From assembly GCA_947652605.1 (NCBI GenBank), contig OX393583.1, positions 8,907,222-8,971,221 of the forward strand: 64,000 bases of DNA, read 5' to 3'. The stretch comes from Elmis aenea. Lineage: Eukaryota > Arthropoda > Insecta > Coleoptera > Elmidae. Each line of letters starts with the position of its first letter. Position 1 is the first letter of the stretch. Shown here in pieces: positions 1 to 24,800 of this stretch. Both the position numbers and the translations under genes were made by a program. Under the pieces are notes generated by a model. That model worked only from the letters and a program-made list of their open reading frames with translations. It was not told the DNA's origin and made no database searches.

Positions 1-3000
1 AAAACCAGCTCATTGAAAGACATATGCAAAACAATTTTTTTCATGTAAAGATGCTATGGGTAAACTCTTCCTGTGATATACAAGTCAATAATTAAAATTG
101 TTTAGAAATAGTCGCTCAAGGAACAGATGTATTATCTACAGCACGGTCGTTTTATGAAATTATTAAAAATTAAAACCAGCTCATTGAAAGACATATGCAA
201 AACAATTTTTTTCATGTAAAGATGCTATGGGTAAACTCTTCCTGTGATATACAAGTCAATAATTAAAATTGTTTAGAAATAATCGCTCAAGGAACACATG
301 TATTATCTACAGCACGGTCGTTTTATGAAATTATTAAAAATTAAAACCAGCTCATTGAAAGACATATGCAAAACAATTTTTTTTATGTAAAGATGCTATG
401 GGTAAACTTTTGCTGTGATATACAAGTCAATAATTAAAATTGTTTAGAAATAATCGCTCAAGGAACACATGTATTATCTACAGCACGGTCGTTTTATGAA
501 ATTATTAAAAATTAAAACCAGCTCATTGAAAGACATATGCAAAACAATTTTTTTCATGTAAATATGCGATGGATAAACTCTTTCTGTGATATACAAGTCA
601 ATAATTAAAATTGTTTAGAAATAGTCGCTCAAGGAATAGATGTATTATCTACAGCACGGTCGTTTTATGAAATTATTAAAAATTAAAACCAGCTCATTGA
701 AAGACATATGCAAAACAATTTTTTTCATGTAAAGATGCTATGGGTAAACTCTTCCTGTGATATACAAGTCAATAATTAAAATTGTTTAGAAATAGTCGCT
801 CAAGGAACAGATGTATTATCTACAGCACGGTCGTTTTATGAAATTATTAAAAATTAAAACCAGCTCATTGAAAGACATATGCAAAACAATTTTTTTCATG
901 TAAAGATGCTATGGGTAAACTCTTCCTGTGATATACAAGTCAATAATTAAAATTGTTTAGAAATAATCGCTCAAGGAACACATGTATTATCTACAGCACG
1001 GTCGTTTTATGAAATTATTAAAAATTAAAACCAGCTCATTGAAAGACATATGCAAAACAATTTTTTTCATGTAAAGATGCTATGGGTAAACTCTTCCTGT
1101 GATATACAAGTCAATAATTAAAATTGTTTAGAAATAGTCGCTCAAGGAACAGATGTATTATCTACAGCACGGTCGTTTTATGAAATTATTTAAAATTAAA
1201 ACCAGCTCATTGAAAGACATATGCAAAACAATTTTTTTCATGTAAAGATGCTATGGGTAAACTTTTGCTGTGATATACAAGTCAATAATTAAAATTGTTT
1301 AGAAATAATCGCTCAAGGAACACATGTATTAACTAAAGCACGGTCTTTTTAGGAAATTATTAAAAATTAAAACCAGCTCATTGAAAGACATATACAAAAC
1401 AATTTTTTTCATGTAAAGAAGCTATGGGTAAACTCTTCCTGTGATATACAAGTCAATAATTAAAATTGTTTAGAAATAATCGCTCAAGGAACACATGTAT
1501 TAACTAAAGCACGGTCTTTTTAGGAAATTTTTAAAAATTAAAACCAGCTCATTGAAAGATATATGCAAAACAATTTTTTTCATATAAAGATGCGATGGAT
1601 AAACTCTTTCTGTGATATACAAGTCAATAATTAAAATTGTTTAGAAATAGTCGCTCAAGGAACACATGTATTATCTACAGCACGGTCGTTGTATGAAATT
1701 ATTAAAAATTAAAACCAGCTCATTGAAAGACATATGCAAAACAATTTTTTTCATGTAAAGATGCTATGGGTAAACTCTTCCTGTGATATACAAGTCAATA
1801 ATTAAAATTGTTAAGAAATAGTCGCTCAAGGAACACATGTATTAACTAAAGCACGGTCTTTTTAGGAAATTATTAAAAATTAAAACCAGCTCATTGAAAG
1901 ACATATGCAAAACAATTTTTTTCATGTAAAGATGCTATGGGTAAACTCTTCCTGTGATATACAAGTCAATAATTAAAATTGTTTAGAAATAGTCGCTCAA
2001 GGAACAGATGTATTATCTACAGCATGGTTGTTTTATGAAATTTTTAAAAATTAAATCCAGCTCATTGAAAGACATATGCAAAACAATTTTTTTCATATAA
2101 AGATGCTATGGGTAAACTCTTCCTGTGATATACAAGTCAATAATTAAAATTGTTTAGAAATAGTCGCTCAAGGAACAGATGTATTATCTACAGCACGGTC
2201 GTTTTATGAAATTATTTAAAATTAAAACCAGCTCATTGAAAGACATATGCAAAACAATTTTTTTCATGTAAAGATGCTATGGGTAAACTTTTGCTGTGAT
2301 ATACAAGTCAATAATTAAAATTGTTTAGAAATAATCGCTCAAGGAACACATGTATTAACTAAAGCACGGTCTTTTTAGGAAATTATTAAAAATTAAAACC
2401 AGCTCATTGAAAGACATATACAAAACAATTTTTTTCATGTAAAGAAGCTATGGGTAAACTCTTCCTGTGATATACAAGTCAATAATTAAAATTGTTTAGA
2501 AATAATCGCTCAAGGAACACATGTATTAACTAAAGCACGGTCTTTTTAGGAAATTTTTAAAAATTAAAACCAGCTCATTGAAAGATATATGCAAAACAAT
2601 TTTTTTCATATAAAGATACGATGGATAAACTCTTTCTGTGATATACAAGTCAATAATTAAAATTGTTTAGAAATAGTCGCTCAAGGAACACATGTATTAT
2701 CTACAGCACGGTCGTTGTATGAAATTATTAAAAATTAAAACCAGCTCATTGAAAGACATATGCAAAACAATTTTTTTCATGTAAAGATGCTATGGGTAAA
2801 CTCTTCCTGTGATATACAAGTCAATAATTAAAATTGTTAAGAAATAGTCGCTCAAGGAACACATGTATTAACTAAAGCACGGTCTTTTTAGGAAATTATT
2901 AAAAATTAAAACCAGCTCATTGAAAGACATATGCAAAACAATTTTTTTCATGTAAAGATGCTATGGGTAAACTCTTCCTGTGATATACAAGTCAATAATT

Positions 3001-6000
3001 AAAATTGTTTAGAAATAGTCGCTCAAGGAACAGATGTATTATCTACAGCATGGTTGTTTTATGAAATTTTTAAAAATTAAATCCAGCTCATTGAAAGACA
3101 TATGCAAAACAATTTTTTTCATATAAAGATGCTATGGGTAAACTCTTCCTGTGATATACAAGTCAATAATTAAAATTGTTTAGAAATAGTCGCTCAAGGA
3201 ACAGATGTATTATCTACAGCACGGTCGTTTTATGAAATTATTTAAAATTAAAACCAGCTCATTGAAAGACATATGCAAAACAATTTTTTTCATGTAAAGA
3301 TGCTATGGGTAAACTCTTCCTGTGATATACAAGTCAATAATTAAAATTGTTAAGAAATAGTCGCTCAAGGAACACATGTATTAACTAAAGCACGGTCTTT
3401 TTAGGAAATTATTAAAAATTAAAACCAGCTCATTGAAAGACATATGCAAAACAATTTTTTTCATGTAAAGATGCTATGGGTAAACTCTTCCTGTGATATA
3501 CAAGTCAATAATTAAAATTGTTTAGAAATAGTCGCTCAAGGAACAGATGTATTATCTACAGCATGGTTGTTTTATGAAATTTTTAAAAATTAAATCCAGC
3601 TCATTGAAAGACATATGCAAAACAATTTTTTTCATGTAAAGATGCTATGGGTAAACTCTTCCTGTGATATACAAGTCAATAATTAAAATTGTTTAGAAAT
3701 AGTCGCTCAAGGAACAGATGTATTATCTACAGCATGGTTGTTTTATGAAATTTTTAAAAATTAAATCCAGCTCATTGAAAGACATATGCAAAACAATTTT
3801 TTTCATGTAAAGATGCGATGGATAAACTCTTTCTGTGATATACAAGTCAATAATTAAAATTGTTTAGAAATAGTCGCTCAAGGAACAGATGTATTATCTA
3901 CAGCACGGTCGTTTTATGAAATTAATAAAAACTAAAACCAGCTCATTGAAAGACATATGCAAAACAATTTTTTTCATGTAAAGATGCGATGGATAAACTC
4001 TTTCTGTGATATACAAGTCAATAATTATAATTGTTTAGAAATAGTCGCTCAAGGAACACATGTATTATCAACAGCAAGGTCGTTTTATGAAATTATTAAA
4101 AATTAAAACCAGCTTATTGAAAGACATATGCAATACAATTTTTTTCATGTAAAGATGCGATGGATAAACTCTTTCTGTGATATACAAGTCAATAATTATA
4201 ATTGTTTAGAAATAGTCGCTCAAGGAACACATGTATTATCAACAGCAAGGTCGTTTTATAAAATTATTAAAAATTAAAACCAGCTTATTGAAAGACATAT
4301 GCAAAACAATTTTTTTCATGTAAAGATGCGATGGATAAACTCTTTCTGTGATATACAAGTCAATAATTAAAATTGTTTAGAAATAGTCGCTCAAGGAACA
4401 GATGTATTATCTACAGCACGGTCGTTTTATGAAATTATTAAAAATTAAAACCAGCTCATTGAAAGACATATGCAAAACAATTTTATTCATGTAAAGATGC
4501 GATGGATAAACTCTTTCTGTGATATACAAGTCAATAATTATAATTGTTTAGAAATAGTCGCTCAAGGAACAGATGTATTATCTACAGCACGGTCGTTTTA
4601 TGAAATTATTAAAAATTAAAACCAGCTCATTGAAAGACATATGCAAAACAATTTTTTTCATGTAAAGATGCTATGGGTAAACTCTTCCTGTGATATACAA
4701 GTCAATAATTAAAATTGTTTAGAAATAATCGCTCAAGGAACACATGTACTATCTACAGCACGGTCGTTTTATGAAATTATTAAAAATTAAAACCAGCTCA
4801 TTGAAAGACATATTATGCAAAACAATTTTTTTCATGTAAAGATGCTATGGGTAAACTCTTCCTGTGATATACAAGTCAATAATTAAAATTGTTTAGAAAT
4901 AGTCGCTCAAGGAACAGATGTATTATCTACAGCACGGTCGTTTTATGAAATTATTAAAAATTAAAACCAGCTCATTGAAAGACATATGCAAAACAATTTT
5001 TTTCATGTAAAGATGCGATGGATAAACTCTTTCTGTGATATACAAGTCAATAATTAAAATTGTTTAGAAATAGTCGCTCAAGGAACTGATGTATTATCTA
5101 CAGCACGGTCGTTTTATGAAATTATTAAAAATTAAAACCAGCTCATTGAAAGACATATGCAAAACAATTTTTTTCATGTAAAGATGCTATGGGTAAACTC
5201 TTCCTGTGATATACAAGTCATTAATTAAAATTGTTTAGAAATAGTCGCTCAAGGAACAGATGTATTATCTACAGCACGGTCGTTTTATGAAATTATTAAA
5301 AACTAAAACCAGCTCATTGAAAGACATATGCAAAACAATTTTTTTCATGTAAAGATGCGATGGATAAACTCTTCCTGTGATATACAAGTCAATAATTAAA
5401 ATTGTTAAGAAATAATCGCTCAAGGAACACATGTATTAACTAAAGCACGGTCTTTTTAGGAAATTATTAAAAATTAAAACCAGCTCATTGAAAGACATAT
5501 GCAAAACAATTTTTTTCATGTAAAGATGCGATGGATAAACTCTTTCTGTGATATACAAGTCAATAATTATAATTGTTTAGAAATAGTCGCTCAATGAACA
5601 CATGTATTATCAACAGCAAGGTCGTTTTATGAAATTATTAAAAATTAAAACCAGCTTATTGAAAGACATATGCAATACAATTTTTTTCATGTAAATATGC
5701 GATAGATAAACTCTTTCTATGATATACAAGTCAATAATTATAATTGTTTAGAAATAGTCGCTCATGTATTATCAACAGCAAGGTCGTTTTATGAAATTAT
5801 TAAAAATTAAAACCAGCTCATTGAAAGACATATGCAAAACAATTTTTTTCATGTAAAGATGCGATGGATAAACTCTTTCTGTGATATACAAGTCAATAAT
5901 TATAATTGTTTAGAAATAGTCGCTCAAGGAACACATGTATTATCTACAGCAAGGTCGTTTTATGAAATTATTAAAAATTAAAACCAGCTTATTGAAAGAC

Positions 6001-9000
6001 ATATGCAAAACAATTTTTTTCATGTAAAGATGCGATGGATAAACTCTTTCTGTGATATACAAGTCAATAATTAAATTTGTTTAGAAATAGTCGCTCAAGG
6101 AACACATGTATTAACTAAAGCACGGTCTTTTTATAAAATTATTAAAAATTAAAACCAGCTCATTGAAAGACATATGCAAAACAATTTTTTTCATGTAAAG
6201 ATGCGATGGATAAACTCTTTCTGTGATATACAAGTCAATAATTATAATTGTTTAGAAATAGTCGCTCAATGAACACATGTATTATCAACAGCAAGGTCGT
6301 TTTATGAAATTATTAAAAATTAAAACCAGCTTATTGAAAGACATATGCAAAACAATTTTTTTCATGTAAAGATGCGATGGATAAACTCTTTCTGTGATAT
6401 ACAAGTCAATAATTAAAATTGTTTAGAAATAGTCGCTCAAGGAACAGATGTATTATCTACAGCACGGTCGTTTTATGAAATTATTAAAAATTAAAACCAG
6501 CTCATTGAAAGACATATGCAAAACAATTTTTTTCATGTAAAGATGCGATGGATAAACTCTTTCTGTGATATACAAGTCAATAATTATAATTGTTTAGAAA
6601 TAGTCGCTCAAGGAACACATGTATTATCAACAGCAAGGTCGTTTTATGAAATTATTAAAAATTAAAACCAGCTCATTGAAAGACATATGCAAAACAATTT
6701 TTTTCATGTAAAGATGCGATGGATAAACTCTTTCTGTGATATACAAGTCAATAATTATAATTGTTTAGAAATAGTCGCTCAAGGAACACATGTATTATCA
6801 ACAGCAAGGTCGTTTTATGAAATTATTAAAAATTAAAACCAGCTCATTGAAAGACATATGCAAAACAATTTTTTTCATGTAAAGATGCGATGGATAAACT
6901 CTTTCTGTGATATACAAGTCAATAATTATAATTGTTTAGAAATAGTCGCTCAAGGAACACATGTATTATCAACAGCAAGGTCGTTTTATGAAATTATTAA
7001 AAATTAAAACCAGCTCATTGAAAGACATATGCAAAACAATTTTTTTCATGTAAAGATGCGATGGATAAACTCTTTCTGTGATATACAAGTCAATAATTAT
7101 AATTGTTTAGAAATAGTCGCTCAAGGAACACATGTATTATCAACAGCAAGGTCGTTTTATGAAATTATTAAAAATTAAAACCAGCTTATTGAAAGACATA
7201 TGCAAAACAATTTTTTTCATGTAAAGATGCGATGGATAAACTCTTTCTGTGATATACAAGTCAATAATTATAATTGTTTAGAAATAGTCGCTCAAGGAAC
7301 ACATGTAATATCAACAGCAAGGTCGTTTTATAAAATTAATAAAAATTAAAACCAGCTTATTGAAAGACATATGCAAAACAATTTTTTTCATGTAAAGATG
7401 CGATGGATAAACTCTTTCTGTGATATACAAGTCAATAATTAAAATTGTTTAGAAATAGTCGCTCAAGGAACAGATGTATTATCTACAGCACGGTCGTTTT
7501 ATGAAATTATTAAAAATTAAAACCAGCTCATTGAAAGACATATGCAAAACAATTTTTTTCATGTAAAGATGCGATGGATAAACTCTTTCTGTGATATACA
7601 AGTCAATAATTAAAATTGTTTAGAAATAGTCGCTCAAGGAACAGATGTATTATCTACAGCACGGTCGTTTTATGAAATTATTAAAAATTAAAACCAGCTC
7701 ATTGAAAGACATATGCAAAACAATTTTATTCATGTAAAGATGCGATGGATAAACTCTTTCTGTGATATACAAGTCAATAATTATAATTGTTTAGAAATAG
7801 TCGCTCAAGGAACAGATGTATTATCTACAGCACGGTCGTTTTATGAAATTATTAAAAATTAAAACCAGCTCATTGAAAGACATATGCAAAACAATTTTTT
7901 TCATGTAAAGATGCTATGGGTAAACTCTTCCTGTGATATACAAGTCAATAATTAAAATTGTTTAGAAATAATCGCTCAAGGAACACATGTATTATCTACA
8001 GCACGGTCGTTTTATGAAATTATTAAAAATTAAAACCAGCTCATTGAAAGACATATGCAAAACAATTTTTTTCATGTAAAGATGCTATGGGTAAACTCTT
8101 CCTGTGATATACAAGTCAATAATTAAAATTGTTTAGAAATAGTCGCTCAAGGAACAGATGTATTATCTACAGCACGGTCGTTTTATGAAATTATTAAAAA
8201 TTAAAACCAGCTCATTGAAAGACATATGCAAAACAATTTTTTTCATGTAAAGATGCGATGGATAAACTCTTTCTGTGATATACAAGTCAATAATTAAAAT
8301 TGTTTAGAAATAGTCGCTCAAGGAACAGATGTATTATCTACAGCACGGTCGTTTTATGAAATTATTAAAAACTAAAACCAGCTCATTGAAAGACATATGC
8401 AAAACAATTTTTTTCATGTAAAGATGCGATGGATAAACTCTTTCTGTGATATACAAGTCAATAATTATAATTGTTTAGAAATAGTCGCTCAATGAACACA
8501 TGTATTATCAACAGCAAGGTCGTTTTATGAAATTATTAAAAATTAAAACCAGCTTATTGAAAGACATATGCGAAACAATTTTTTTCATGTAAAGATGCGA
8601 TAGATAAACTCTTTCTATGATATACAAGTCAATAATTATAATTGTTTAGAAATAGTCGCTCAAGGAACACATGTATTATCAACAGCAAGGTCGTTTTATG
8701 AAATTATTAAAAATTAAAACCAGCTTATTGAAAGACATATGCAATACAATTTTTTTCATGTAAAGATGCGATAGATAAACTCTTTCTATGATATACAAGT
8801 CAATAATTATAATTGTTTAGAAATAGTCGCTCAAGGAACACATGTATTATCAACAGCAAGGTCGTTTTATGAAATTATTAAAAATTAAAACCAGCTCATT
8901 GAAAGACATATGCAAAACAATTTTTTTCATGTAAAGATGCGATGGATAAACTCTTTCTGTGATATACAAGTCAATAATTATAATTGTTTAGAAATAGTCG

Positions 9001-12000
9001 CTCAAGGAACACATGTATTATCAACAGCAAGGTCGTTTTATGAAATTATTAAAAATTAAAACCAGCTTATTGAAAGACATATGCGAAACAATTTTTTTCA
9101 TGTAAAGATGCGATAGATAAACTCTTTCTATGATATACAAGTCAATAATTATAATTGTTTAGAAATAGTCGCTCAAGGAACACATGTATTATCAACAGCA
9201 AGGTCGTTTTATGAAATTATTAAAAATTAAAACCAGCTTATTGAAAGACATATGCGAAACAATTTTTTTCATGTAAAGATGCGATAGATAAACTCTTTCT
9301 GTGATATACAAGTCAATAATTATAATTGTTTAGAAATAGTCGCTCAAGGAACACATGTATTATCAACAGCAAGGTCGTTTTATGAAATTATTAAAAATTA
9401 AAACCAGCTTATTGAAAGACATATGCGAAACAATTTTTGTCATGTAAAGATGCGATAGATAAACTCTTTCTATGATATACAAGTCAATAATTATAATTGT
9501 TTAGAAATAGTCGCTCAAGGAACACATGTATTATCAACAGCAAGGTCGTTTTATGAAATTATTAAAAATTAAAACCAGCTTATTGAAAGACATATGCAAT
9601 ACAATTTTTTTCATGTAAAGATGCGATAGATAAACTCTTTCTATGATATACAAGTCAATAATTATAATTGTTTAGAAATAGTCGCTCAAGGAACACATGT
9701 ATTATCAACAGCAAGGTCGTTTTATGAAATTATTAAAAATTAAAACCAGCTCATTGAAAGACATATGCAAAACAATTTTATTCATGTAAAGATGCGATGG
9801 ATAAACTCTTTCTGTGATATACAAGTCAATAATTATAATTGTTTAGAAATAGTCGCTCAAGGAACACATGTATTATCAACAGCAAGGTCGTTTTATGAAA
9901 TTATTAAAAATTAAAACCAGCTTATTGAAAGACATATGCAAAACAATTTTTTTCATGTAAAGATGCGATGGATAAACTCTTTCTATGATATACAAGTCAA
10001 TAATTATAATTATTGTTTAGAAATAGTCGCTCAAAGAACACATGTATTATCAACAGCAAGGTCGTTTTATAAAATTATTAAAAATTAAAACCAGCTTATT
10101 GAAAGACATATGCAAAACAATTTTTTTCATGTAAAGATGCGATGGATAAACTCTTTCTGTGATATACAAGTCAATAATTAAAATTGTTTAGAAATAGTCG
10201 CTCAAGGAACAGATGTATTATCTACAGCACGGTCGTTTTATGAAATTATTAAAAATTAAAACCAGCTCATTGAAAGACATATGCAAAACAATTTTATTCA
10301 TGTAAAGATGCGATGGATAAACTCTTTCTGTGATATACAAGTCAATAATTATAATTGTTTAGAAATAGTCGCTCAAGGAACAGATGTATTATCTACAGCA
10401 CGGTCGTTTTATGAAATTATTAAAAACTAAAACCAGCTCATTGAAAGACATATGCAAAACATTTTTTTTCATGTAAAGATGCGATGGATAAACTCTTCCT
10501 GTGATATACAAGTCAATAATTAAAATTGTTAAGAAATAGTCGCTCAAGGAACACATGTATTATCAACAGCAAGGTCGTTTTATGAAATTATTAAAAATTA
10601 AAACCAGCTTATTGAAAGACATATGCAAAACAATTTTTTTCATGTAAAGATGCGATGGATAAACTCTTTCTGTGATATACAAGTCAATAATTATAATTGT
10701 TTAAAAATAGTCGCTCAAGGAACACATGTATTATCAACAGCAAGGTCGTTTTATGAAATTATTAAAAATTAAAACCAGCTTATTGAAAGACATATGCAAA
10801 ACAATTTTTTTCATGTAAAGATGCGATGGATAAACTCTTTCTGTGATATACAAGTCAATAATTATAATTGTTTAGAAATAGTCGCTCAAGGAACACATGT
10901 ATTATCAACAGCAAGGTCGTTTTATGAAATTATTAAAAATTAAAACCAGCTCATTGAAAGACATATGCAAAACAATTTTTTTCATGTAAAGATGCGATGG
11001 ATAAACTCTTTCTGTGATATACAAGTCAATAATTATAATTGTTTAGAAATAGTCGCTCAAGGAACACATGTATTAACAACAGCAAGGTCGTTTTATGAAA
11101 TTATTAAAAATTAAAACCAGCTTATTGAAAGACATATGCAAAACAATTTTTTTCATGTAAAGATGCGATGGATAAACTCTTTCTGTGATATACAAGTCAA
11201 TAATTATAATTGTTTAGAAATAGTCGCTCAAGGAACACATGTAATATCAACAGCAAGGTCGTTTTATAAAATTATTAAAAATTAAAACCAGCTTATTGAA
11301 AGACATATGCAAAACAATTTTTTTCATGTAAAGATGCGATGGATAAACTCTTTCTGTGATATACAAGTCAATAATTAAAATTGTTTAGAAATAGTCGCTC
11401 AAGGAACAGATGTATTATCTACAGCACGGTCGTTTTATGAAATTATTAAAAATTAAAACCAGCTCATTGAAAGACATATGCAAAACAATTTTTTTCATGT
11501 AAAGATGCGATGGATAAACTCTTTCTGTGATATACAAGTCAATAATTAAAATTGTTTAGAAATAGTCGCTCAAGGAACAGATGTATTATCTACAGCACGG
11601 TCGTTTTATGAAATTATTAAAAATTAAAACCAGCTCATTGAAAGACATATGCAAAACAATTTTATTCATGTAAAGATGCGATGGATAAACTCTTTCTGTG
11701 ATATACAAGTCAATAATTATAATTGTTTAGAAAAAGTCGCTCAAGGAACAGATGTATTATCTACAGCACGGTCGTTTTATGAAATTATTAAAAATTAAAA
11801 CCAGCTCATTGAAAGACATATGCAAAACAATTTTTTTCATGTAAAGATGCTATGGGTAAACTCTTCCTGTGATATACAAGTCAATAATTAAAATTGTTTA
11901 GAAATAATCGCTCAAGGAACACATGTATTATCTACAGCACGGTCGTTTTATGAAATTATTAAAAATTAAAACCAGCTCATTGAAAGACATATGCAAAACA

Positions 12001-15000
12001 ATTTTTTTCATGTAAAGATGCTATGGGTAAACTCTTCCTGTGATATACAAGTCAATAATTAAAATTGTTTAGAAATAGTCGCTCAAGGAACAGATGTATT
12101 ATCTACAGCACGGTCGTTTTATGAAATTATTAAAAATTAAAACCAGCTCATTGAAAGACATATGCAAAACAATTTTTTTCATGTAAAGATGCTATGGGTA
12201 AACTCTTCCTGTGATATACAAGTCAATAATTAAAATTGTTTAGAAATAGTCGCTCAAGGAACAGATGTATTATCTACAGCACGGTCGTTTTATGAAATTA
12301 TTAAAAATTAAAACCAGCTCATTGAAAGACATATGCAAAACAATTTTTTTCATGTAAAGATGCGATGGATAAACTCTTTCTGTGATATACAAGTCAATAA
12401 TTATAATTGTTTAGAAATAGTCGCTCAATGAACACATGTATTATCAACAGCAAGGTCGTTTTATGAAATTATTAAAAATTAAAACCAGCTTATTGAAAGA
12501 CATATGCAATACAATTTTTTTCATGTAAAGATGCGATAGATAAACTCTTTCTGTGATATACAAGTCAATAATTATAATTGTTTAGAAATAGTCGCTCAAG
12601 GAACACATGTATTATCAACAGCAAGGTCGTTTTATGAAATTATTAAAAATTTAAACCAGCTTATTGAAAGACATATGCGAAACAATTTTTTTCATGTAAA
12701 GATGCGATAGATAAACTCTTTCTATGATATACAAGTCAATAATTATAATTGTTTAGAAATAGTCGCTCAAGGAACACATGTATTATCAACAGCAAGGTCG
12801 TTTTATGAAATTATTAAAAATTAAAACCAGCTTATTGAAAGACATATGCAATACAATTTTTTTCATGTAAAGATGCGATAGATAAACTCTTTCTATGATA
12901 TACAAGTCAATAATTATAATTGTTTAGAAATAGTCGCTCAAGGAACACATGTATTATCAACAGCAAGGTCGTTTTATGAAATTATTAAAAATTAAAACCA
13001 GCTCATTGAAAGACATATGCAAAACAATTTTTTTCATGTAAAGATGCGATGGATAAACTCTTTCTGTGATATACAAGTCAATAATTATAATTGTTTAGAA
13101 ATAGTCGCTCAAGGAACACATGTATTATCAACAGCAAGGTCGTTTTATGAAATTATTAAAAATTAAAACCAGCTTATTGAAAGACATATGCAAAACAATT
13201 TTTTTCATGTAAAGATGCGATGGATAAACTCTTTCTATGATATACAAGTCAATAATTATAATTATTGTTTAGAAATAGTCGCTCAAAGAACACATGTATT
13301 ATCAACAGCAAGGTCGTTTTATAAAATTATTAAAAATTAAAACCAGCTTATTGAAAGACATATGCAAAACAATTTTTTTCATGTAAAGATGCGATGGATA
13401 AACTCTTTCTGTGATATACAAGTCAATAATTAAAATTGTTTAGAAATAGTCGCTCAAGGAACAGATGTATTATCTACAGCACGGTCGTTTTATGAAATTA
13501 TTAAAAATTAAAACCAGCTCATTGAAAGACATATGCAAAACAATTTTATTCATGTAAAGATGCGATGGATAAACTCTTTCTGTGATATACAAGTCAATAA
13601 TTATAATTGTTTAGAAATAGTCGCTCAAGGAACAGATGTATTATCTACAGCACGGTCGTTTTATGAAATTATTAAAAACTAAAACCAGCTCATTGAAAGA
13701 CATATGCAAAACAATTTTTTTCATGTAAAGATGCGATGGATAAACTCTTCCTGTGATATACAAGTCAATAATTAAAATTGTTAAGAAATAATCGCTCAAG
13801 GAACACATGTATTATCAACAGCAAGGTCGTTTTATGAAATTATTAAAAATTAAAACCAGCTTATTGAAAGACATATGCAAAACAATTTTTTTCATGTAAA
13901 GATGCGATGGATAAACTCTTTCTGTGATATACAAGTCAATAATTATAATTGTTTAAAAATAGTCGCTCAAGGAACACATGTATTATCAACAGCAAGGTCG
14001 TTTTATGAAATTATTAAAAATTAAAACCAGCTTATTGAAAGACATATGCAAAACAATTTTTTTCATGTAAAGATGCGATGGATAAACTCTTTCTGTGATA
14101 TACAAGTCAATAATTATAATTGTTTAGAAATAGTCGCTCAAGGAACACATGTATTATCAACAGCAAGGTCGTTTTATGAAATTATTAAAAATTAAAACCA
14201 GCATATTGAAAGACATATGCAAAACAATTTTTTTCATGTAAAGATGTGATGGATAAACTCTTTCTATGATATACAAGTCAATAATTATAATTGTTTAGAA
14301 ATAGTCGCTCAAGGAACACATGTATTATCAACAGCAAGGTCGTTTTATGAAATTATTAAAAATTAAAACCAGCTCATTGAAAGACATATGCAAAACAATT
14401 TTTTTCATGTAAAGATGCGATGGATAAACTCTTTCTGTGATATACAAGTCAATAATTATAATTGTTTAGAAATAGTCGCTCAAGGAACACATGTATTATC
14501 AACAGCAAGGTCGTTTTATGAAATTATTAAAAATTAAAACCAGCTTATTGAAAGACATATGCAAAACAATTTTTTTCATGTAAAGATGCGATGGATAAAC
14601 TCTTTCTATGATATACAAGTCAATAATTATAATTGTTTAGAAATAGTCGCTCAAGGAACACATGTATTATCAACAGCAAGGTCGTTTTATGAAATTATTA
14701 AAAATTAAAACCAGCTCATTGAAAGACATATGCAAAACAATTTTTTTCATGTAAAGATGCGATGGATAAACTCTTTCTGTGATATACAAGTCAATAATTA
14801 TAATTGTTTAGAAATAGTCGCTCAAGGAACACATGTATTATCAACAGCAAGGTCGTTTTATGAAATTATTAAAAATTAAAACCAGCTTATTGAAAGACAT
14901 ATGCAAAACAATTTTTTTCATGTAAAGATGCGATGGATAAACTCTTTCTGTGATATACAAGTCAATAATTATAATTGTTTAGAAATAGTCGCTCAAGGAA

Positions 15001-18000
15001 CACATGTATTATCAACAGCAAGGTCGTTTTATGAAATTATTAAAAATTAAAACCAGCTTATTGAAAGACATATGCAATACAATTTTTTTCATGTAAAGAT
15101 GCGATAGATAAACTCTTTCTATAATATACAAGTCAATAATTATAATTGTTTAGAAATAGTCGCTCAAGGAACACATGTATTACCAACAGCAAGGTCGTTT
15201 TATGAAATTATTAAAAATTAAAACCAGCTTATTGAAAGACATATGCAATACAATTTTTTTCATGTAAAGATGTGATGGATAAACTCTTTCTATGATATAC
15301 AAGTCAATAATTATAATTGTTTAGAAATAGTCGCTCAAGGAACACATGTATTATCAACAGCAAGGTCGTTTTATGAAATTATTAAAATTTAAAACCAGCT
15401 CATTGAAAGACATATGCAAAACAATTTTTTTCATGTAAAGATGCGATGGATAAACTCTTTCTGTGATATACAAGTCAATAATTATAATTGTTTAGAAATA
15501 GTCGCTCAAGGAACACATGTATTATCAACAGCAAGGTCGTTTTATGAAATTATTAAAAATTAAAACCAGCTTATTGAAAGACATATGCAATACAATTTTT
15601 TTCATGTAAAGATGCGATAGATAAACTCTTTCTATGATATACAAGTCAATAATTATAATTGTTTAGAAATAGTCGCTCAAGGAACACATGTATTATCAAC
15701 AGCAAGGTCGTTTTATGAAATTATTAAAATTTAAAACCAGCTCATTGAAAGACATATGCAAAACAATTTTTTTCATGTAAAGATGCGATGGATAAACTCT
15801 TTCTGTGATATACAAGTCAATAATTATAATTGTTTAGAAATAGTCGCTCAAGGAACACATGTATTATCAACAGCAAGGTCGTTTTATGAAATTATTAAAA
15901 ATTAAAACCAGCTTATTGAAAGACATATGCAAAACAATTTTTTTCATGTAAAGATGCGATGGATAAACTCTTTCTGTGATATACAAGTCAATAATTATAA
16001 TTGTTTAGAAATAGTCGCTCAAGGAACACATGTATTATCAACAGCAAGGTCGTTTTATGAAATTATTAAAAATTAAAACCAGCATATTGAAAGACATATG
16101 CAAAACAATTTTTTTCATGTAAAGATGTGATGGATAAACTCTTTCTATGATATACAAGTCAATAATTATAATTGTTTAGAAATAGTCGCTCAAGGAACAC
16201 ATGTATTATCAACAGCAAGGTCGTTTTATGAAATTATTAAAAATTAAAACCAGCTCATTGAAAGACATATGCAAAACAATTTTTTTCATGTAAAGATGCG
16301 ATGGATAAACTCTTTCTGTGATATACAAGTCAATAATTATAATTGTTTAGAAATAGTCGCTCAAGGAACACATGTATTATCAACAGCAAGGTCGTTTTAT
16401 GAAATTATTAAAAATTAAAACCAGCTTATTGAAAGACATATGCAAAACAATTTTTTTCATGTAAAGATGCGATGGATAAACTCTTTCTATGATATACAAG
16501 TCAATAATTATAATTGTTTAGAAATAGTCGCTCAAGGAACACATGTATTATCAACAGCAAGGTCGTTTTATGAAATTATTAAAAATTAAAACCAGCTCAT
16601 TGAAAGACATATGCAAAACAATTTTTTTCATGTAAAGATGCGATGGATAAACTCTTTCTGTGATATACAAGTCAATAATTATAATTGTTTAGAAATAGTC
16701 GCTCAAGGAACACATGTATTATCAACAGCAAGGTCGTTTTATGAAATTATTAAAAATTAAAACCAGCTTATTGAAAGACATATGCAAAACAATTTTTTTC
16801 ATGTAAAGATGCGATGGATAAACTCTTTCTGTGATATACAAGTCAATAATTATAATTGTTTAGAAATAGTCGCTCAAGGAACACATGTATTATCAACAGC
16901 AAGGTCGTTTTATGAAATTATTAAAAATTAAAACCAGCTTATTGAAAGACATATGCAATACAATTTTTTTCATGTAAAGATGCGATAGATAAACTCTTTC
17001 TATAATATACAAGTCAATAATTATAATTGTTTAGAAATAGTCGCTCAAGGAACACATGTATTACCAACAGCAAGGTCGTTTTATGAAATTATTAAAAATT
17101 AAAACCAGCTTATTGAAAGACATATGCAATACAATTTTTTTCATGTAAAGATGTGATGGATAAACTCTTTCTATGATATACAAGTCAATAATTATAATTG
17201 TTTAGAAATAGTCGCTCAAGGAACACATGTATTATCAACAGCAAGGTCGTTTTATGAAATTATTAAAATTTAAAACCAGCTCATTGAAAGACATATGCAA
17301 AACAATTTTTTTCATGTAAAGATGCGATGGATAAACTCTTTCTGTGATATACAAGTCAATAATTATAATTGTTTAGAAATAGTCGCTCAAGGAACACATG
17401 TATTATCAACAGCAAGGTCGTTTTATGAAATTATTAAAAATTAAAACCAGCTTATTGAAAGACATATGCAATACAATTTTTTTCATGTAAAGATGCGATA
17501 GATAAACTCTTTCTATGATATACAAGTCAATAATTATAATTGTTTAGAAATAGTCGCTCAAGGAACACATGTATTATCAACAGCAAGGTCGTTTTATGAA
17601 ATTATTAAAATTTAAAACCAGCTCATTGAAAGACATATGCAAAACAATTTTTTTCATGTAAAGATGCGATGGATAAACTCTTTCTGTGATATACAAGTCA
17701 ATAATTATAATTGTTTAGAAATAGTCGCTCAAGGAACACATGTATTATCAACAGCAAGGTCGTTTTATGAAATTATTAAAAATTAAAACCAGCTTATTGA
17801 AAGACATATGCAAAACAATTTTTTTCATGTAAAGATGCGATGGATAAACTCTTTCTGTGATATACAAGTCAATAATTAAAATTGTTTAGAAATAGTCGCT
17901 CAAGGAACACATGTATTATCAACAGCAAGGTCGTTTTATAAAATTATTAAAAATTAAAACCAGCTTATTGAAAGACATATGCAAAACAATTTTTTTCATG

Positions 18001-19383
18001 TAAAGATGCGATGGATAAACTCTTTCTGTGATATACAAGTCAATAATTAAAATTGTTTAGAAATAGTCGCTCAAGGAACAGATGTATTATCTACAGCACG
18101 GTCGTTTTATGAAATTATTAAAAATTAAAACCAGCTCATTGAAAGACATATGCAAAACAATTTTATTCATGTAAAGATGCGATGGATAAACTCTTTCTGT
18201 GATATACAAGTCAATAATTATAATTGTTTAGAAATAGTCGCTCAAGGAACAGATGTATTATCTACAGCAAGGTCGTTGTATGAAATTATTAAAAATTAAA
18301 ACCAGCTCATTGAAAGACATATGCAAAACAATTTTTTTCATGTAAAGATGCTATGGGTAAACTCTTCCTGTGATATACAAGTCAATAATTAAAATTGTTT
18401 AGAAATAATCGCTCAAGGAACACATGTATTATCTACAGCACGGTCGTTTTATGAAATTATTAAAAATTAAAACCAGCTCATTGAAAGACATATGCAAAAC
18501 AATTTTTTTCATGTAAAGATGCTATGGGTAAACTCTTCCTGTGATATACAAGTCAATAATTAAAATTGTTTAGAAATAGTCGCTCAAGGAACAGATGTAT
18601 TATCTACAGCACGGTCGTTTTATGAAATTATTAAAAATTAAAACCAGCTCATTGAAAGACATATGCAAAACAATTTTTTTCATGTAAAGATGCGATGGAT
18701 AAACTCTTTCTGTGATATACAAGTCAATAATTATAATTGTTTAGAAATAGTCGCTCAAGGAACAGATGTATTATCTACAGCACGGTCGTTTTATGAAATT
18801 ATTAAAAATTAAAACCAGCTCATTGAAAGACATATGCAAAACAATTTTTTTCATGTAAAGATGCTATGGGTAAACTCTTCCTGTGATATACAAGTCAATA
18901 ATTAAAATTGTTTAGAAATAATCGCTCAAGGAACACATGTACTAACTAAAGCACGGTCTTTTTAGGAAATTAATAAAAATTAAAACCAGCTCATTGAAAG
19001 ACATATGCAAAACAATTTTTTTCATGTAAAGATGCGATGGATAAACTCTTCCTGTGATATACAAGTCAATAATTAAAATTGTTTAGAAATAATCGCTCAA
19101 GGAACACATGTATTAACTAAAGCACGGTCTTTTTAAGAAATTTTTAAAAATTAAAACCAGCTCATTGAAAGACTTATGCAAAACAATTTTTTTCATGTAA
19201 AGATGCGATGGATAAACTCTTTCTGTGATATACAAGTCAATAATTAAAATTGTTTAGAAATAGTCGCTCAAGGAACACATGTATTATTTACAGCACAGTC
19301 GTTTTATGAAATTATTAAAAATTAAAACCAGCTCATTGAAAGACATATGCAAAACATTTTTTTTCATGTAAAGATGCTATGGA
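1..19383. repeat. 171-bp satellite array, about 113 monomers
   Basis: Head-to-tail tandem repeat with an exact 171-bp period (monomer starts at 1, 172, 343 and so on). It runs from the window edge to a sharp end inside a monomer at about 19383. Monomers are AT-rich, have stops in every frame and are not coding. Three variant types are visible: type A (GATGCTATGGG, AATTAAAATTG, CAGATG, CAGCACGG), type B (GATGCGATGGA, AATTATAATTG, CACATG, CAGCAAGG) and type C (TTAACTAAAGCACGGTC then TTTTTAGG). A 3-bp insertion occurs near 4813, a 13-bp deletion near 5765 and a 3-bp insertion at 10011 and 13263. Several blocks of monomers are duplicated as units. The next exon downstream is internal to TRRAP, so the array is probably intronic. 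Confidence 0.97.
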
Positions 19384-19498
19384 TGATTAAAAGTAATCTA
19401 GGGAGTTATACGTTTTAAATGACAAATATAAAAAATAGATAAAAATAATTTGTTTACGTAAAATTGTAGTCTCGCATGTTTTTTATATAATATATAAG
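19384..19498. other. short AT-rich junction after the satellite
   Basis: Unique AT-rich sequence between the last satellite monomer and the first fold-back element. No exon, RNA gene or repeat is recognised. Confidence 0.5.
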
Positions 19499-20118
19499 TA
19501 CAGGGTGGCCTATTTTCGAGATAGAAAAAAACTAAGTATGTAGTCTCGATTTCTTTTTTCGATAGAAATTCATTGCCGTAAACAGATTTTTGATATCTTT
19601 TTAATTTTCGAAATATAGCCAAAAACCGATTTTCGGCAATTTTCAAAAATGTTAAATATCTCGCTTAAACGAAAAGATAGAGAAAAACTTTAAAGACATT
19701 TTTTGCATGGTTTTTTGTCCTTAATAATATAGCGATATTCAATTTCTTTTTACTCATACAAATATTGATATATTACACCTAACTTTCTTATTTTAAATGG
19801 CAACCATAGTTGGCTTTGACATAAATCGAAAGCTTATTTGTTGCACTTTTCAAAAATATATAATTTGCTTATGTTTGCCATTTAAAATAAGAAAGTTAGG
19901 TGTAATATATCAATATCCCTATGAGTAAAAAATAAATTAACATCGCTATATTATTAAGGACAAAAAATCATGCCAAAAATGTCCTTAAAGTTTTTCTCTA
20001 TCTTTTTGTTTAAGCGAGATATTTAACATTTTTGAAAATTTTCGAAAATCGGTTTTTGGCTATATTTCAAAAATTAAAAAAGATATCAGAAATATCTGTT
20101 TACGGCAATGAATGTACT
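19499..20118. mobile_element. fold-back (long-TIR) element, TACAGGGTGGCC family
   Basis: It starts TACAGGGTGGCCTATTTTCG at a TA. The left arm (about 19499-19805) is the inverted copy of the right arm (about 19872-20118). The arms share ATAGCCAAAAACCG/CGGTTTTTGGCTAT and ACACCTAACTTTC/GAAAGTTAGGTGT. The right end lacks the terminal CCCTGTA, so it is probably truncated. There is no ORF of transposase type. A second, better preserved member lies at 50791-51281. Confidence 0.8.
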
Positions 20119-20208
20119 TCCTCCTAAGGTAAAGTAGCCCAAGGAGATAACGTCTGTTGACAGCAGCATACATCTTTCTATCGTCTCAACTAAAAACAAA
20201 CTATTCAG

Positions 20209-20302
20209 CGGCAGCGGTAATGCCGTCGTGTGTGAAAGACTCGAACTTCCGATGCCGCTACCGCTGGCGGCAACGGCAGCGGCATTGCCGTCGTGTGTGA
20301 AA
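20209..20302. repeat. GC-rich direct repeat, 2 copies of 29 bp
   Basis: Two copies of CGGCAGCGGYAWTGCCGTCG followed by TGTGTGAAA lie at 20209-20236 and 20274-20302, separated by a GCCGCTACCGCTGGCGG segment. This is a small GC-rich island in AT-rich surroundings. It may be the terminus of an unidentified element. Confidence 0.5.
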
Positions 20303-20310
20303 ACGGCCTA

Positions 20311-20660
20311 ACCCCTTGTTTAAAAAATTCCCCGGACAATAAACCCCTGTTTAAAAAAAAAACCAATTTAAAAACTCCCCGGACAATAACCCCTTGTTAA
20401 AAAAATTCCCCGGACAATAACCCCCTGTTTAAATAAACCCCGGACAATAACCCCCTGTTTAAAAAAAATCCCAATTTAAAAACTCCCCGGACAATAAATA
20501 ACCCTTTGTTTAAAAAATTCACCGGACAATAACCCCCTGTTTAAAAAAACAAATTTGGAAACCTCCCGGAAAATAACCCCTGTTTATAAAAACCCAATTT
20601 AAAACCATCCTAAGCAATAACCCCTTGTACAATAACCCACTGTTTAAAACCGCCCGTATA
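20311..20660. repeat. minisatellite, about 30-bp unit (CCCCGGACAATAA..CCCCTTGTTTAAAAAA)
   Basis: About eleven degenerate copies of a roughly 30-bp unit built on CCCCGGACAATAACCCC and TGTTTAAAAAA. Copies vary by small indels. Not coding. Confidence 0.85.
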
Positions 20661-21600
20661 AATATAAAGAAGTTAAATAAAATTTTCTTGACACAACAAT
20701 GGATACAAAAATTTATTTGATGTAATAAATGTGTTAAAATAAATATTCTAACAAATATTTACTGGATTCACAAAATATGGATGACGGTCATTAACATTTG
20801 AAATTGAATGTGCATTCAAATATAACACCTGAAGAAGATATAATTTTTATTTTGTATTCTATTTATTTTTTGTTATTGCAAATTTAACACTTTACATTGC
20901 CGATATTTCAAATGGTAGGAGTTAATCATCTGTTTTTTTTTTAATTTGGGGGGTTAATTGTCAGGGTTTTTGATTACCTGGGGGTTTTAAAAAGGGGGTT
21001 AATAGTCCTGTTACGACTAGTTACACATCATCTAAAAAAATACAAATACAAAATTGATTCAATAGCTACTATACAATTTTTAATGTATTGAAAAGTATGA
21101 CTTTTATTCATTTTGTATTTTTGTTAAAACCCTGATAATATAAATAACATTTCACGTACGTATCAACAAAATTTTTAAAAAATCGTTTTTTAATGGCTCT
21201 TAAGTTAACTATGATTAGTGATTAAAACAATTGAGGTTTGGTTTGTAACTCTTTGGCTGCTCAACTTTTAAAATTAATGATATTTCTATCATAATTTCTG
21301 TAAAATTATCTAAAAGTTACTTTTAAAGAATTTTCTTCTCTGTCATAGTTAAAAACATATTCGCATTTAATGCTTTTGTAGTTTTAAAATTGTTTTTGTG
21401 CTGACTCAGTGAGTCTTCTTTTTTTTAACATCTATGAATGTTGCCCAACAACATTCAGTAACTATTATGACATTGGAAAAGTCGTTTAATAAAAATTTTG
21501 TGTAATTTGGTAGATCTTTGCCTTAAGTATACATAATATTTAAAAAACACATTAACGAGTGTGTTAACTTTATTTTTATATTTCTTTATAATTTTTACAG
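20661..21600. other. intronic sequence upstream of the first visible TRRAP exon
   Basis: AT-rich sequence with no supported exon and no recognisable RNA gene. It ends in the splice acceptor TTTTTACAG at 21600. No start codon or promoter arrangement is seen that would make this the 5' end of the gene, and the phase of the next exon shows that coding sequence lies further upstream. Confidence 0.6.
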
Positions 21601-21839
21601 TGACGATCAGTTGAAACAGACCGAGCTGACATCTAAGTTGGAGCCTGCTTTCCTGGCCGGCTTGAGGTGCAGTCAGCCCCAGATAAGAGCCAAATTTTTC
21701 AAAGTTTTCGATTCGTCCATGCGTAGACGGCTGCACGATCGTTTATTGTACATCACGTGCTCGCAAAATTGGGACGCCATCGGTGCACATTATTGGATCA
21801 AGCAGTGCATCGAACTGTTGATAGTTACTGTCTCATCTG
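21601..21839 (+). CDS. TRRAP exon 1 of window
   Basis: Internal exon; it starts one base before a codon boundary after TTTTTACAG. Landmark LRCSQPQIRAKFFKVFDSS and HYWIKQCIELL match the conserved HEAT region before FAT. The donor is GCAAGT at 21840, a GC-AG intron. With this donor the protein between IELL and the ILPDIT motif of the next exon keeps the same length as the vertebrate protein. Confidence 0.95.
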
Positions 21840-24800
21840 GCAAGTTTTTTTTTTTTTTTTAATAGCTCGCCAATATTTTTAAATAATACAGACCTAACGA
21901 GAAAAAAAATTGAATTATATTCATAACATGGAAATGTAATGGATATAAATTTTTAAAAAACTTCGCAAATTTCAAATATGAATTGAAAAACAATTGACGA
22001 ACTAGTACAGCCAAACTAAAATACTGCTGGGCTTTGTTTAAAAACATTTGAAGTCTTGCTCACAAAGCAAAAACATTTGAAGTGTTACATAACAAAAACA
22101 TTTAAAGTGTTACATATTATAAAATATTTGCTGTGACAAAAACATTTGAAGTCTTATTCCCCAAGCAAAAGCATTTGAAGTTTTACATTCAAAGCAAAAA
22201 CATTTGAAGTCTTACTTCCAAAGCAAAAACATTTGTGAAGTCTCACTTCCACAGCAAAAACATTTGAAGTCCCACTTCCAAAGCAAAAATATTTGAAGTT
22301 TTTTTTCCAAAGCAAAAACATTTGAAGTCTTACTTCCAACATAAAAACATTTGAAGTCTTACATAGCAAAAACATTTGAAGTCTCACTTCCAAAGCAAAA
22401 ACATTTGAAGTCTCACTTCCAAAGCAAAAACTTTTGAAGTCTTACGTCCAACACAAAAACATTTGAAGTCTTACTTCCAACACAAAAACATTTGAAGTCT
22501 TACTTCCAAAGAAAAAACATTTGAAGTCTTTCTTCCAATGCAAAAACATTTGAAGCCTTATTCCCCAAGCAAAAACTTTGATTTTGAAGCATTCTAAAAT
22601 TTTTTGGAGTTTGTTTTTGTATCAAAAATAATTTACTATTATTTTTTTCTGTTTTGTAAACAAACAAAACAACTTTGTTTATTTTTTTAAAGAAACGAGA
22701 ATCCAAATGTCGCAAGAAAGCAGCATCCTACCAGACATCACAGGAGTTATAAATTCGGGTGATCCTCAAAAACGAGACGAATTCTACGCAATGAAGCACG
22801 AGAATCACGATTTATACGAATCAGTGGAAATAAAAGAAGTTAGTATGAACCCATGAGTAAAATTAACCACCAATACTAATATTGTAACACTGTTCTTTAG
22901 GAAGTCTTGGACATGGACTTATCGAACGTGGAGTCGAATCAAATTATTGAAGAAAAACCAATAAACAGGGTCGAGACTATAACTAAACACATTTCCAAGC
23001 ATTACGAATTTATAGAAGTGTGCAGGAACGTGACTACGGATCAGTTTTTGGTAGCAGCTGCTCAACTGTGCCACATGGATACGAATTTAGCTGAACAAGT
23101 TTGGTTGCAATTGTTTCCAAGGTTGTGGGAGGTCTTGGATGAAGCTCAACGTAGTGTAAGTACTGTGATATTTAACTTTGACATGTTTGTTGTTCATAAT
23201 AATTTTGTTTAATCCATAAATGATGGTAAATGGTACACTGCTCAATGTTTTTACATTCAAAATTATTCGCAAGCAAACCCTTGGGCAGATTTTTTCAACC
23301 TTTTTGTGTTTGTGCCCTTTTTTTATTTTATTGGGCCCCCCTTTCCATATCTATTTTTATTCCGCCCCCCTTTCAATTCTTTTGTTCTGCCAAAACACTA
23401 TTTGTTTTAATTTCTCAACCGTCCTTTGACCGAGTGTATTATTTTTAAAATGTAGGGACTTTTAATACTCAATGTTTTTACATCCAAAATTATCCCGCAG
23501 CAAACCCTTGGGCAGATTTTTTCAACCTTTCTGTGTTTGTGCCCCCTTTTTTTATTTTATTGGGCCCCCCCCTCCATATCTATTTTTATTGTGCCCCCCT
23601 TTCAATTCTTTTGTTCTGCCAAAACACTATTTGTTTTAATTTCTCAACCGTCCTTTGACCGAGTGTATTATTTTTAAAATGTAGGGTCTTTTAATACTCA
23701 ATGTTTTTACATCCAAAATTATCCCGCAGCAAACCCTTGGGCAGTTTTTTTCCACCTTTTTGTGTTTGTGTCCCCTTTTTTTATTTTATTGGGCCCCCCT
23801 TTTCATATCTATTTTTATTGTGCCCCCCCTTCAATTCTTTTGTTCTGCCAAAACACTAATTGTTTTAATTTCTCAACCGTCCTTGAACCGAGTCTATTAT
23901 TTTTAAGTGGCTTTGAAATCATAGATGAAAAATACATGCAAATGATCCTTTTCTTTTAATTAATATTTTTCGCTGTTTCTCCAATTAGTCCCATGCCTTT
24001 GCTTTTGTTAATTTTTATTTTTATTTCAATCTGTAATAGATTTTGTTTATTTGATTATGTTTTGTTTTTGTCTCTCGTTTTAGCTAATAATACTTATCAT
24101 CTCTTCATAGTAGGCTTTACGTCAGGGGTTCCCAACCTTTTTTAAGCCTCGACCCTTCATTTAAAAAAATTATAACATCGACCCCTTTTTTTTCAAGTAT
24201 CATTGAACCCCAAACGACCCCTACAGGTTCATCAACCCTATTCAAGTTTTCATCGACCATGTTGGGAACCTCTGCTTTACGTCAGTCATTAATTAATACT
24301 ACTCTATAATGTTTTCTTAAATATGTATGTACAGGGTGTTCCAAATTCGATGGGATTACACGGATATCTCGCTTAATATTCGAGATAAAAAATTGGTTAA
24401 ATTATCAAAAATGTGCAGTTTTTTGAGACAAACTCAGAACCGTTTTCAAAAATTTTCGATCATTTCCAGTTTCTGAGTTATTAAAAAAAAGGGTGTTTCT
24501 TTTGTCATATTAATAATGTGTCGTATCTCAGTTATTGTTGTAAATATGGAAAAAGATTGTGTAGATTATTTTTATGTAAAATTCGATTACACTTTTTTTT
24601 TAAATTACACTCGCCGTTAAAAAGTTGTGACACAAACTTCGTTTTTCTAAATTGAAGCTATAGTTGGCCATGACTTATTTAAATTCCTTATTTTTTTCTT
24701 ATTCCAAATATGTAAGTGTTGATGTAGTTATTTTCAATAATACGTAAGTTACAGAGGATAGACTAGGGTACCTCTATATAACAGGGTATGGCCAAGCTAC

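What the first reader, a model, noticed from the sequence alone, without database searches (positions are those of the whole stretch)
1..21600. A satellite of at least 19.4 kb appears to sit inside a TRRAP/Nipped-A intron
The first exon after the array begins within a codon and within the protein (about residue 2,500 of the family). The rest of the gene must therefore lie left of about 113 satellite monomers. Splicing over such an array in an essential gene is unusual. An assembly misjoin is the main alternative.
Basis: partly seen in the sequence, partly recalled or inferred. Interest (0 to 1): 0.75.

Follow-up and report, generated by a model that had tools for sequence, protein, structure and literature searches.

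The report
Satellite array inside an essential gene's intron
In a beetle chromosome, a 19.6-kb block of about 114 near-identical DNA repeats sits inside a small transposon copy within one intron of an apparently intact TRRAP gene, so the cell should have to splice across it; the placement looks real rather than an assembly error.

Summary
The 171-bp array runs C8:8907046-8926605 (window -175..19384), 19,560 bp, about 114 monomers. Upstream TRRAP coding pieces lie directly to its left, in the order of human residues 9-2425; the exon at 21601 resumes at human 2427. The exon before the array joined to the 23 exons after it gives one open frame of 1,495 codons, matching human TRRAP in one stretch to its C-terminus. 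The 270-residue part searched occurs once in the genome.

A misjoin is very unlikely. No N run lies in C8:8807222-9002141. The array separates the two halves of one transposon copy with 47-bp terminal inverted repeats and matching TAA target duplications. Six other copies fetched carry no satellite, and the exact left junction occurs once genome-wide.

Best reading: satellite DNA entered a MITE already resident in the intron, perhaps through 10-bp microhomology, and expanded locally; transcripts are spliced over it (inferred, no RNA available). The last intron is 95% a second, 160-bp satellite. Intronic satellites and satellite-bearing transposons are known; length and base-resolved nesting are the unusual points.

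The parts
1..19384 (+). 171-bp satellite array (continues 175 bp left of the window; 19,560 bp in all, about 114 monomers)
   Evidence: monomer statistics
19385..20308 (+). right 924 bp of the MITE copy that holds the array: 546-bp foldback and the 3' terminal inverted repeat; target duplication TAA at 20309-20311. The left 216 bp are at window -391..-176, with TAA at -394..-392
20312..20655 (+). CCCCGGACAATAACCCC minisatellite into which the MITE inserted (same repeat at window -884..-392)
21601..21839 (+). first TRRAP exon right of the array (starts within a codon; human residue 2427 onward; followed by a GC donor)
22693..56520 (+). TRRAP exons 2-22 of the window: 22693-22838, 22901-23155, 27158-27288, 27446-27596, 27665-27915, 28050-28218, 30017-30184, 33090-33341, 38040-38319, 45100-45346, 45402-45528, 45812-45907, 45972-46178, 48691-48865, 48927-49152, 49212-49521, 50156-50288, 52807-53006, 53160-53301, 55825-55964, 56326-56520
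   Evidence: with exon 1, 1,413 codons without a stop; domains
56668..60956 (+). 160-bp satellite filling 95% of the terminal TRRAP intron (56521-61014)
   Evidence: multi-locus family
61015..61092 (+). last TRRAP exon (VSTLVAAASSHDNLCRMDPAWHPWL, stop)
62423..64000 (+). 160-bp satellite resuming downstream of the TRRAP stop codon (to 64184 in the chromosome)

Best explanation
The window is the 3' half of an apparently intact beetle TRRAP/Nipped-A gene. In its intron at human position 2426/2427, a MITE (a short non-autonomous DNA transposon with 47-bp inverted ends and a 3-bp target duplication) first inserted into a local minisatellite. Later, a piece of a genome-wide 171-bp satellite entered that MITE copy, perhaps at a 10-bp stretch shared by MITE and satellite, and grew by unequal exchange to about 114 monomers. 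The pre-mRNA is then spliced over a 22.6-kb intron that is 86% satellite. Shown by sequence: position, open frame across the array, single copy of the part searched, MITE boundaries, an empty site elsewhere, unique left junction, private monomer variants against the arrays sampled. Inferred: order of events, microhomology-driven entry, local expansion, and splicing in the animal.
For: Upstream: 13 aligned stretches among 34 hand-picked open-frame pieces (window -46089..-1028) follow the order of human TRRAP 9-2425 (E 1.2e-286 and 0). Exon -1198..-1029 plus the 23 exons after the array: 1,495 codons, only the final stop; 21 GT donors, 1 GC donor, 23 AG acceptors. Joined protein aligns in one stretch, 1-1446 to 2401-3848 of 7kts_A, 2003 bits. 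One copy of the 270 residues searched. MITE ends, TIRs and TAA/TAA duplication. 7 of 7 compared MITE copies, the window's included, have matching 3-bp duplications; L030 joins the same two halves with no array. Exact left junction: 1 place among 78,374 hits with up to 3 mismatches; 4 near-miss places fetched are plain satellite with no MITE end. 10-bp shared run at the left junction, reached in 1.8e-4 of all MITE-position x monomer-phase combinations. 109 of 109 monomers nearest to their own array. Edges more diverged (8.3 and 7.0 differences per 171) than the middle (3.8). Longest exact internal repeat 2,041 bp.
Against: No RNA or long reads were available, so splicing and the exact copy number are unproven. 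Of the two junctions only the left shows microhomology; the right has none that is clear, and the 1.8e-4 is not corrected for having looked at both. Monomer diversity (4.17% pairwise) exceeds the MITE copy's private change (11 of 1,132 sites), so growth from one monomer after MITE insertion does not fit; a multi-monomer seed or faster satellite change is needed. Three of the 34 upstream pieces (starting -31068, -27918, -18429) have almost no aligned residues, one stretch (human 1729-1761) is weak, and human 177-210, 897-940 and 1691-1728 are uncovered, so upstream integrity is not fully shown. The right-junction search did not complete.
Confidence: 0.82

Rival explanations
1. The whole 20.7-kb unit (MITE ends plus array) transposed into the intron as one element, so the satellite is transposon cargo.
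For: The array is exactly bounded by intact ends and a TAA duplication; satellite-bearing elements exist in oyster and Xenopus (PMC7492417, PMC12628747, passages seen).
Against: 6 of 6 other copies fetched are 1.17-1.79 kb without satellite; the exact left junction occurs only once in the genome, and 4 of 4 near-miss places fetched are plain satellite. Most of the 186 candidate copies were not read.
Confidence: 0.1
2. Assembly misjoin: an array from elsewhere was joined between two parts of the gene, or the two sides are not neighbours.
For: Arrays of this family are abundant (78,374 monomer-like hits) and a 200-N scaffold gap lies 30.9 kb right of the window.
Against: No N run across the locus; consecutive exons on both sides in one open frame, searched part single copy; both edges run into halves of one MITE copy with identical target duplications in the same minisatellite; monomers private to this array against those sampled, 109 of 109.
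Confidence: 0.02
3. The gene copy is a decayed pseudogene or partial duplicate, so nothing has to be spliced.
For: None beyond the odd intron content and the three short uncovered stretches upstream.
Against: 1,495 codons around and after the array with no inner stop and usable splice sites; four Pfam domains above cut-off, FATC included; one copy of the searched part.
Confidence: 0.02
4. The array is a functional part of TRRAP, for example an intronic heterochromatin or RNA-binding platform that tunes expression or splicing.
For: Y-linked Drosophila genes with satellite introns depend on intron-binding proteins (PMC12965833, passages seen); satellite repeats are reported to modulate gene expression in Tribolium (PMC4537270, start of abstract).
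Against: Nothing here points to function: the array's lack of splice-like signals is uninformative because it is one repeated monomer, and conservation was not tested.
Confidence: 0.06

Closest known systems
TCAST satellite repeats in Tribolium castaneum euchromatin and introns (PMC3411249, PMC5844308; passages seen)
   Same: Beetle satellite repeats inside introns; some embedded in elements with inverted ends and 3-bp target duplications.
   Different: In the 2012 study the tandem pieces reach at most four monomers (1,440 nt); here about 114 monomers, 19,560 bp.
Satellite-bearing non-autonomous elements: oyster Cg_HINE (PMC7492417) and Xenopus miDNA4 MITE (as told in PMC12628747); passages seen
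   Same: A tandem array enclosed by transposon ends; AT-rich microhomology proposed for miDNA4.
   Different: The oyster arrays sit in many element copies and are short (longest 29.3 monomers); here the left junction is unique, so this array has not spread with the element.
Satellite-containing gigantic introns of Drosophila Y-linked fertility genes (PMC12965833, passages seen)
   Same: Introns rich in satellite that must be spliced.
   Different: Those are Y-linked fertility genes with introns up to megabases; this is a broadly used gene (recalled) on a 34-Mb chromosome with a 22.6-kb intron. Sex linkage of C8 was not tested.
Drosophila Nipped-A, the fly TRRAP gene, treated in a review of heterochromatic genes (PMC9563267, passages seen)
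   Same: Orthologous gene family; the review says heterochromatic fly genes are large because of transposon-rich introns.
   Different: The fly intron content was not compared here; whether the beetle locus is heterochromatic was not tested.

Membership tests
TRRAP/Tra1/Nipped-A | Tra1 HEAT ring, FAT, PI3K-like and FATC domains in order | tested here: met
   PF20206, PF02259, PF00454, PF02260, all above curated cut-offs
TRRAP/Tra1/Nipped-A | Collinearity with solved TRRAP along the protein | tested here: met
   to the C-terminus; for human 9-2425 with three short gaps, on open-frame pieces rather than finished exons
Satellite DNA | Long head-to-tail array of a monomer found at many loci | tested here: met
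PIF/Harbinger-like MITE | Terminal inverted repeats | tested here: met
   47 bp, 43 of 47 identical
PIF/Harbinger-like MITE | 3-bp target duplication, usually TWA | tested here: met
   7 of 7 have 3-bp duplications; 6 of 7 are TAA or TTA, one is ATA. The TWA rule is recalled; the 3-bp duplication is in the abstract of PMC2213677 (listing)
PIF/Harbinger-like MITE | Related autonomous element with DDE transposase | not tested
   no search for one was made
Intron spliced across a satellite | mRNA joining the flanking exons | not testable with these tools
   no RNA data available; supported only by frame and homology

The most novel reading that the evidence does not exclude
A recent, possibly polymorphic satellite invasion of an essential gene: capture of satellite DNA into a resident MITE by microhomology, followed by expansion within the intron, and in the same gene a second satellite filling the last intron, so that TRRAP expression now depends on splicing over satellite introns, a parallel of the intron gigantism of Drosophila Y genes.
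Probability: 0.15. Interest if true: 0.7.

Novelty: new member of a known kind. Interest (0 to 1): 0.42.

Why it matters
It is a base-resolved case of how a satellite array can settle in a gene: the empty transposon site, both junctions and the private monomer variants are all visible. It also gives a natural test of whether an essential gene tolerates about 20 kb of satellite in an intron without the special splicing help reported for Drosophila Y-linked genes.

Tried and rejected
Misjoin: rejected on the MITE halves with shared target duplication, the absence of gaps and the single copy of the searched part. Satellite derived from the MITE itself: disfavoured, no match at E 1e-4 between the monomer and six MITE copies. 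Transposon cargo: disfavoured by the unique left junction; a near-miss place that could have been a second junction (C296:10998, 1 mismatch) and three more were fetched and are plain satellite. Selection against splice or polyA signals in the array: counted on the sense strand (0 GTRAGT, 0 YYYYYYNCAG, 3 AATAAA, 259 ATTAAA) but uninformative because it is one monomer repeated. Array 3 (C8:9011580-9050403) inside another foldback element: inverted repeats of 79-82% between its flanks, not pursued. The last TRRAP exon was first thought to lie beyond the second array (note); corrected when it was found at 61015. The window's species was not identified; beetle, perhaps elateroid, is inferred from trehalase matches.

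Full report
Where the window lies. It is C8:8907222-8971221 (+) of a 516.4-Mb assembly in 302 contigs. A trehalase frame in the window has as its best named matches beetle proteins, such as those of Exocentrus (47%), Ignelater (52-58%), Lamprigera and Photinus (50-56%); one cockroach is among the 120 listed. The species was not identified.

The array. Tandem Repeats Finder reports 1-19384, 171 bp, 113.4 copies, 96% match. Adding 100 kb on each side shows the whole array: C8:8907046-8926605, 19,560 bp, 114.4 copies. The only N run in the 264 kb is 200 N at C8:9002142, outside the locus. The longest exact repeat inside the array is 2,041 bp, so long accurate reads could resolve it; which reads were used is unknown.

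The gene. From 21601 on, 22 exons give 1,413 codons without a stop, and a 23rd, last exon lies at 61015-61092. Together they match Tra1_ring, FAT, PI3_PI4_kinase and FATC. The exon just left of the array (-1198..-1029) joined to all 23 gives 1,495 codons with only the final stop; donors are 21 GT and 1 GC, acceptors 23 AG. Further left, I hand-picked 34 open-frame pieces from window -46089 to -1028, out of 312 plus-strand frames of 38 residues or more in the stretch scanned. They give 13 aligned stretches in the order of human TRRAP 9-2425. One stretch (human 1729-1761) is weak, three pieces have almost no aligned residues, and human 177-210, 897-940 and 1691-1728 are not covered; these are frames, not finished exons. 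The protein joined across the array aligns in a single stretch to the end of chain 7kts_A (2401-3848, 2003 bits). A 270-residue query spanning the array finds only this locus: 9 of 9 candidates scored, 4 matches, all here.

How the array sits in the intron. The intron is 22,629 bp, 86.4% satellite. The array is not in bare intron. Its left neighbour is a 216-bp sequence that begins with a 47-bp inverted repeat, and its right neighbour is a 924-bp sequence that ends with the partner repeat (43 of 47 identical). Both ends abut TAA, inside a CCCCGGACAATAACCCC minisatellite. The 216-bp end has 186 candidates genome-wide; the 40 scored, the window's own included, all match over at least 215 bases at 97% or better. 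Six other copies were fetched; all have both ends, are 1,171-1,794 bp long, carry matching 3-bp duplications and no satellite. The nearest, L030, differs from the window copy at 17 of 1,137 sites (K2P 0.0151) and runs straight through the point where the array sits. The left junction shares 10 bases between MITE and monomer; such a run or longer occurs in 1.8e-4 of all MITE-position x monomer-phase combinations. At the right junction there is no clear microhomology.

Origin of the array. A pattern over the left junction, up to 3 mismatches, hits 40,453 + 37,921 places against 0 for the reversed control. An ordinary monomer has exactly 3 mismatches to it (my count), so this is in effect a monomer count: at least 78,374, or about 13.4 Mb, 2.6% of the assembly (my arithmetic). 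The exact junction occurs once; four near-miss places, of the 99 others listed, were fetched and are plain satellite without a MITE end. Monomers of exactly 171 bp from this array (109; four intervals of other length dropped) were compared with those of array 3 on C8 (219) and of pieces from C4 and C6 (96). All 109 are closest to their own array; the consensus differs by 15 of 171 from array 3, 85 kb away, and by 3-5 from the C4 and C6 pieces. Other arrays were not sampled. Pairwise diversity is 4.17%, while the MITE copy has only 11 private changes in 1,132 sites, 0.97%. I read this as entry of several monomers at once, then local growth and homogenising; faster change in the satellite is an alternative.

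The second satellite. A 160-bp family fills 56668-60956, 95.4% of the terminal intron (4,494 bp), and resumes at 62423-64184 after the stop codon on the same strand. It too is a multi-locus family (C1, C3, C6, C7, C8, C252); among the places listed, other copies here are 93-99% and copies elsewhere 91-95% identical to the query (22 of 659 candidates scored).

What is known. T. castaneum satellite pieces near genes reach four monomers in the 2012 survey (PMC3411249, passages), and TCAST repeats taken together are enriched in introns (PMC5844308, passages). Oyster elements carry arrays of up to 29.3 monomers (PMC7492417, passages). Microhomologies were proposed to drive array growth in the Xenopus miDNA4 MITE (as told in PMC12628747, passages). 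Drosophila Y genes have satellite introns that are hard to splice (PMC12965833, passages). Fly Nipped-A is treated in a review of heterochromatic genes (PMC9563267, passages). I saw no earlier report of this locus in the listings, which cover open-licence papers only and could not be searched by species name.

Limits. No RNA, no reads, no relatives. Copy number rests on the assembly. The right junction's uniqueness, the chromatin state and sex linkage of C8 are untested. Verdict: a real and well-bounded case of a known kind of event, notable for length, for nesting and for the gene it is in.

Noticed in passing
window 41864-43576 and 65343-67079: Two trehalase frames on the gene's strand, 64.9% identical over 569 residues: one uninterrupted inside a TRRAP intron (38320-45099), the other 4.25 kb after the TRRAP stop. 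Probably tandem duplicates.
   Followed up: partly
window 56668-60956 and 62423-64184: A 160-bp satellite flanks the last TRRAP exon on both sides in the same orientation.
   Followed up: partly
C8:9011580-9050403 (window 104359-143182): A 38.8-kb array of a different subfamily of the 171-bp satellite ends 714 bp before a frame that reads like an exon of a sugar transporter (by eye), so it may also be intronic.
   Followed up: partly
L035 4409-5954: A 171-bp array on C4 is interrupted by about 1.5 kb of other sequence that may be coding or transposon-derived.
   Followed up: no
window 21840: The intron after the first post-array exon appears to use a GC donor (gcaagt).
   Followed up: no
window 22137-22581, 44030-44437, 46489-47271, 49663-50085: Other TRRAP introns hold shorter tandem repeats of 29, 10, 283 and 39 bp.
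   Followed up: no
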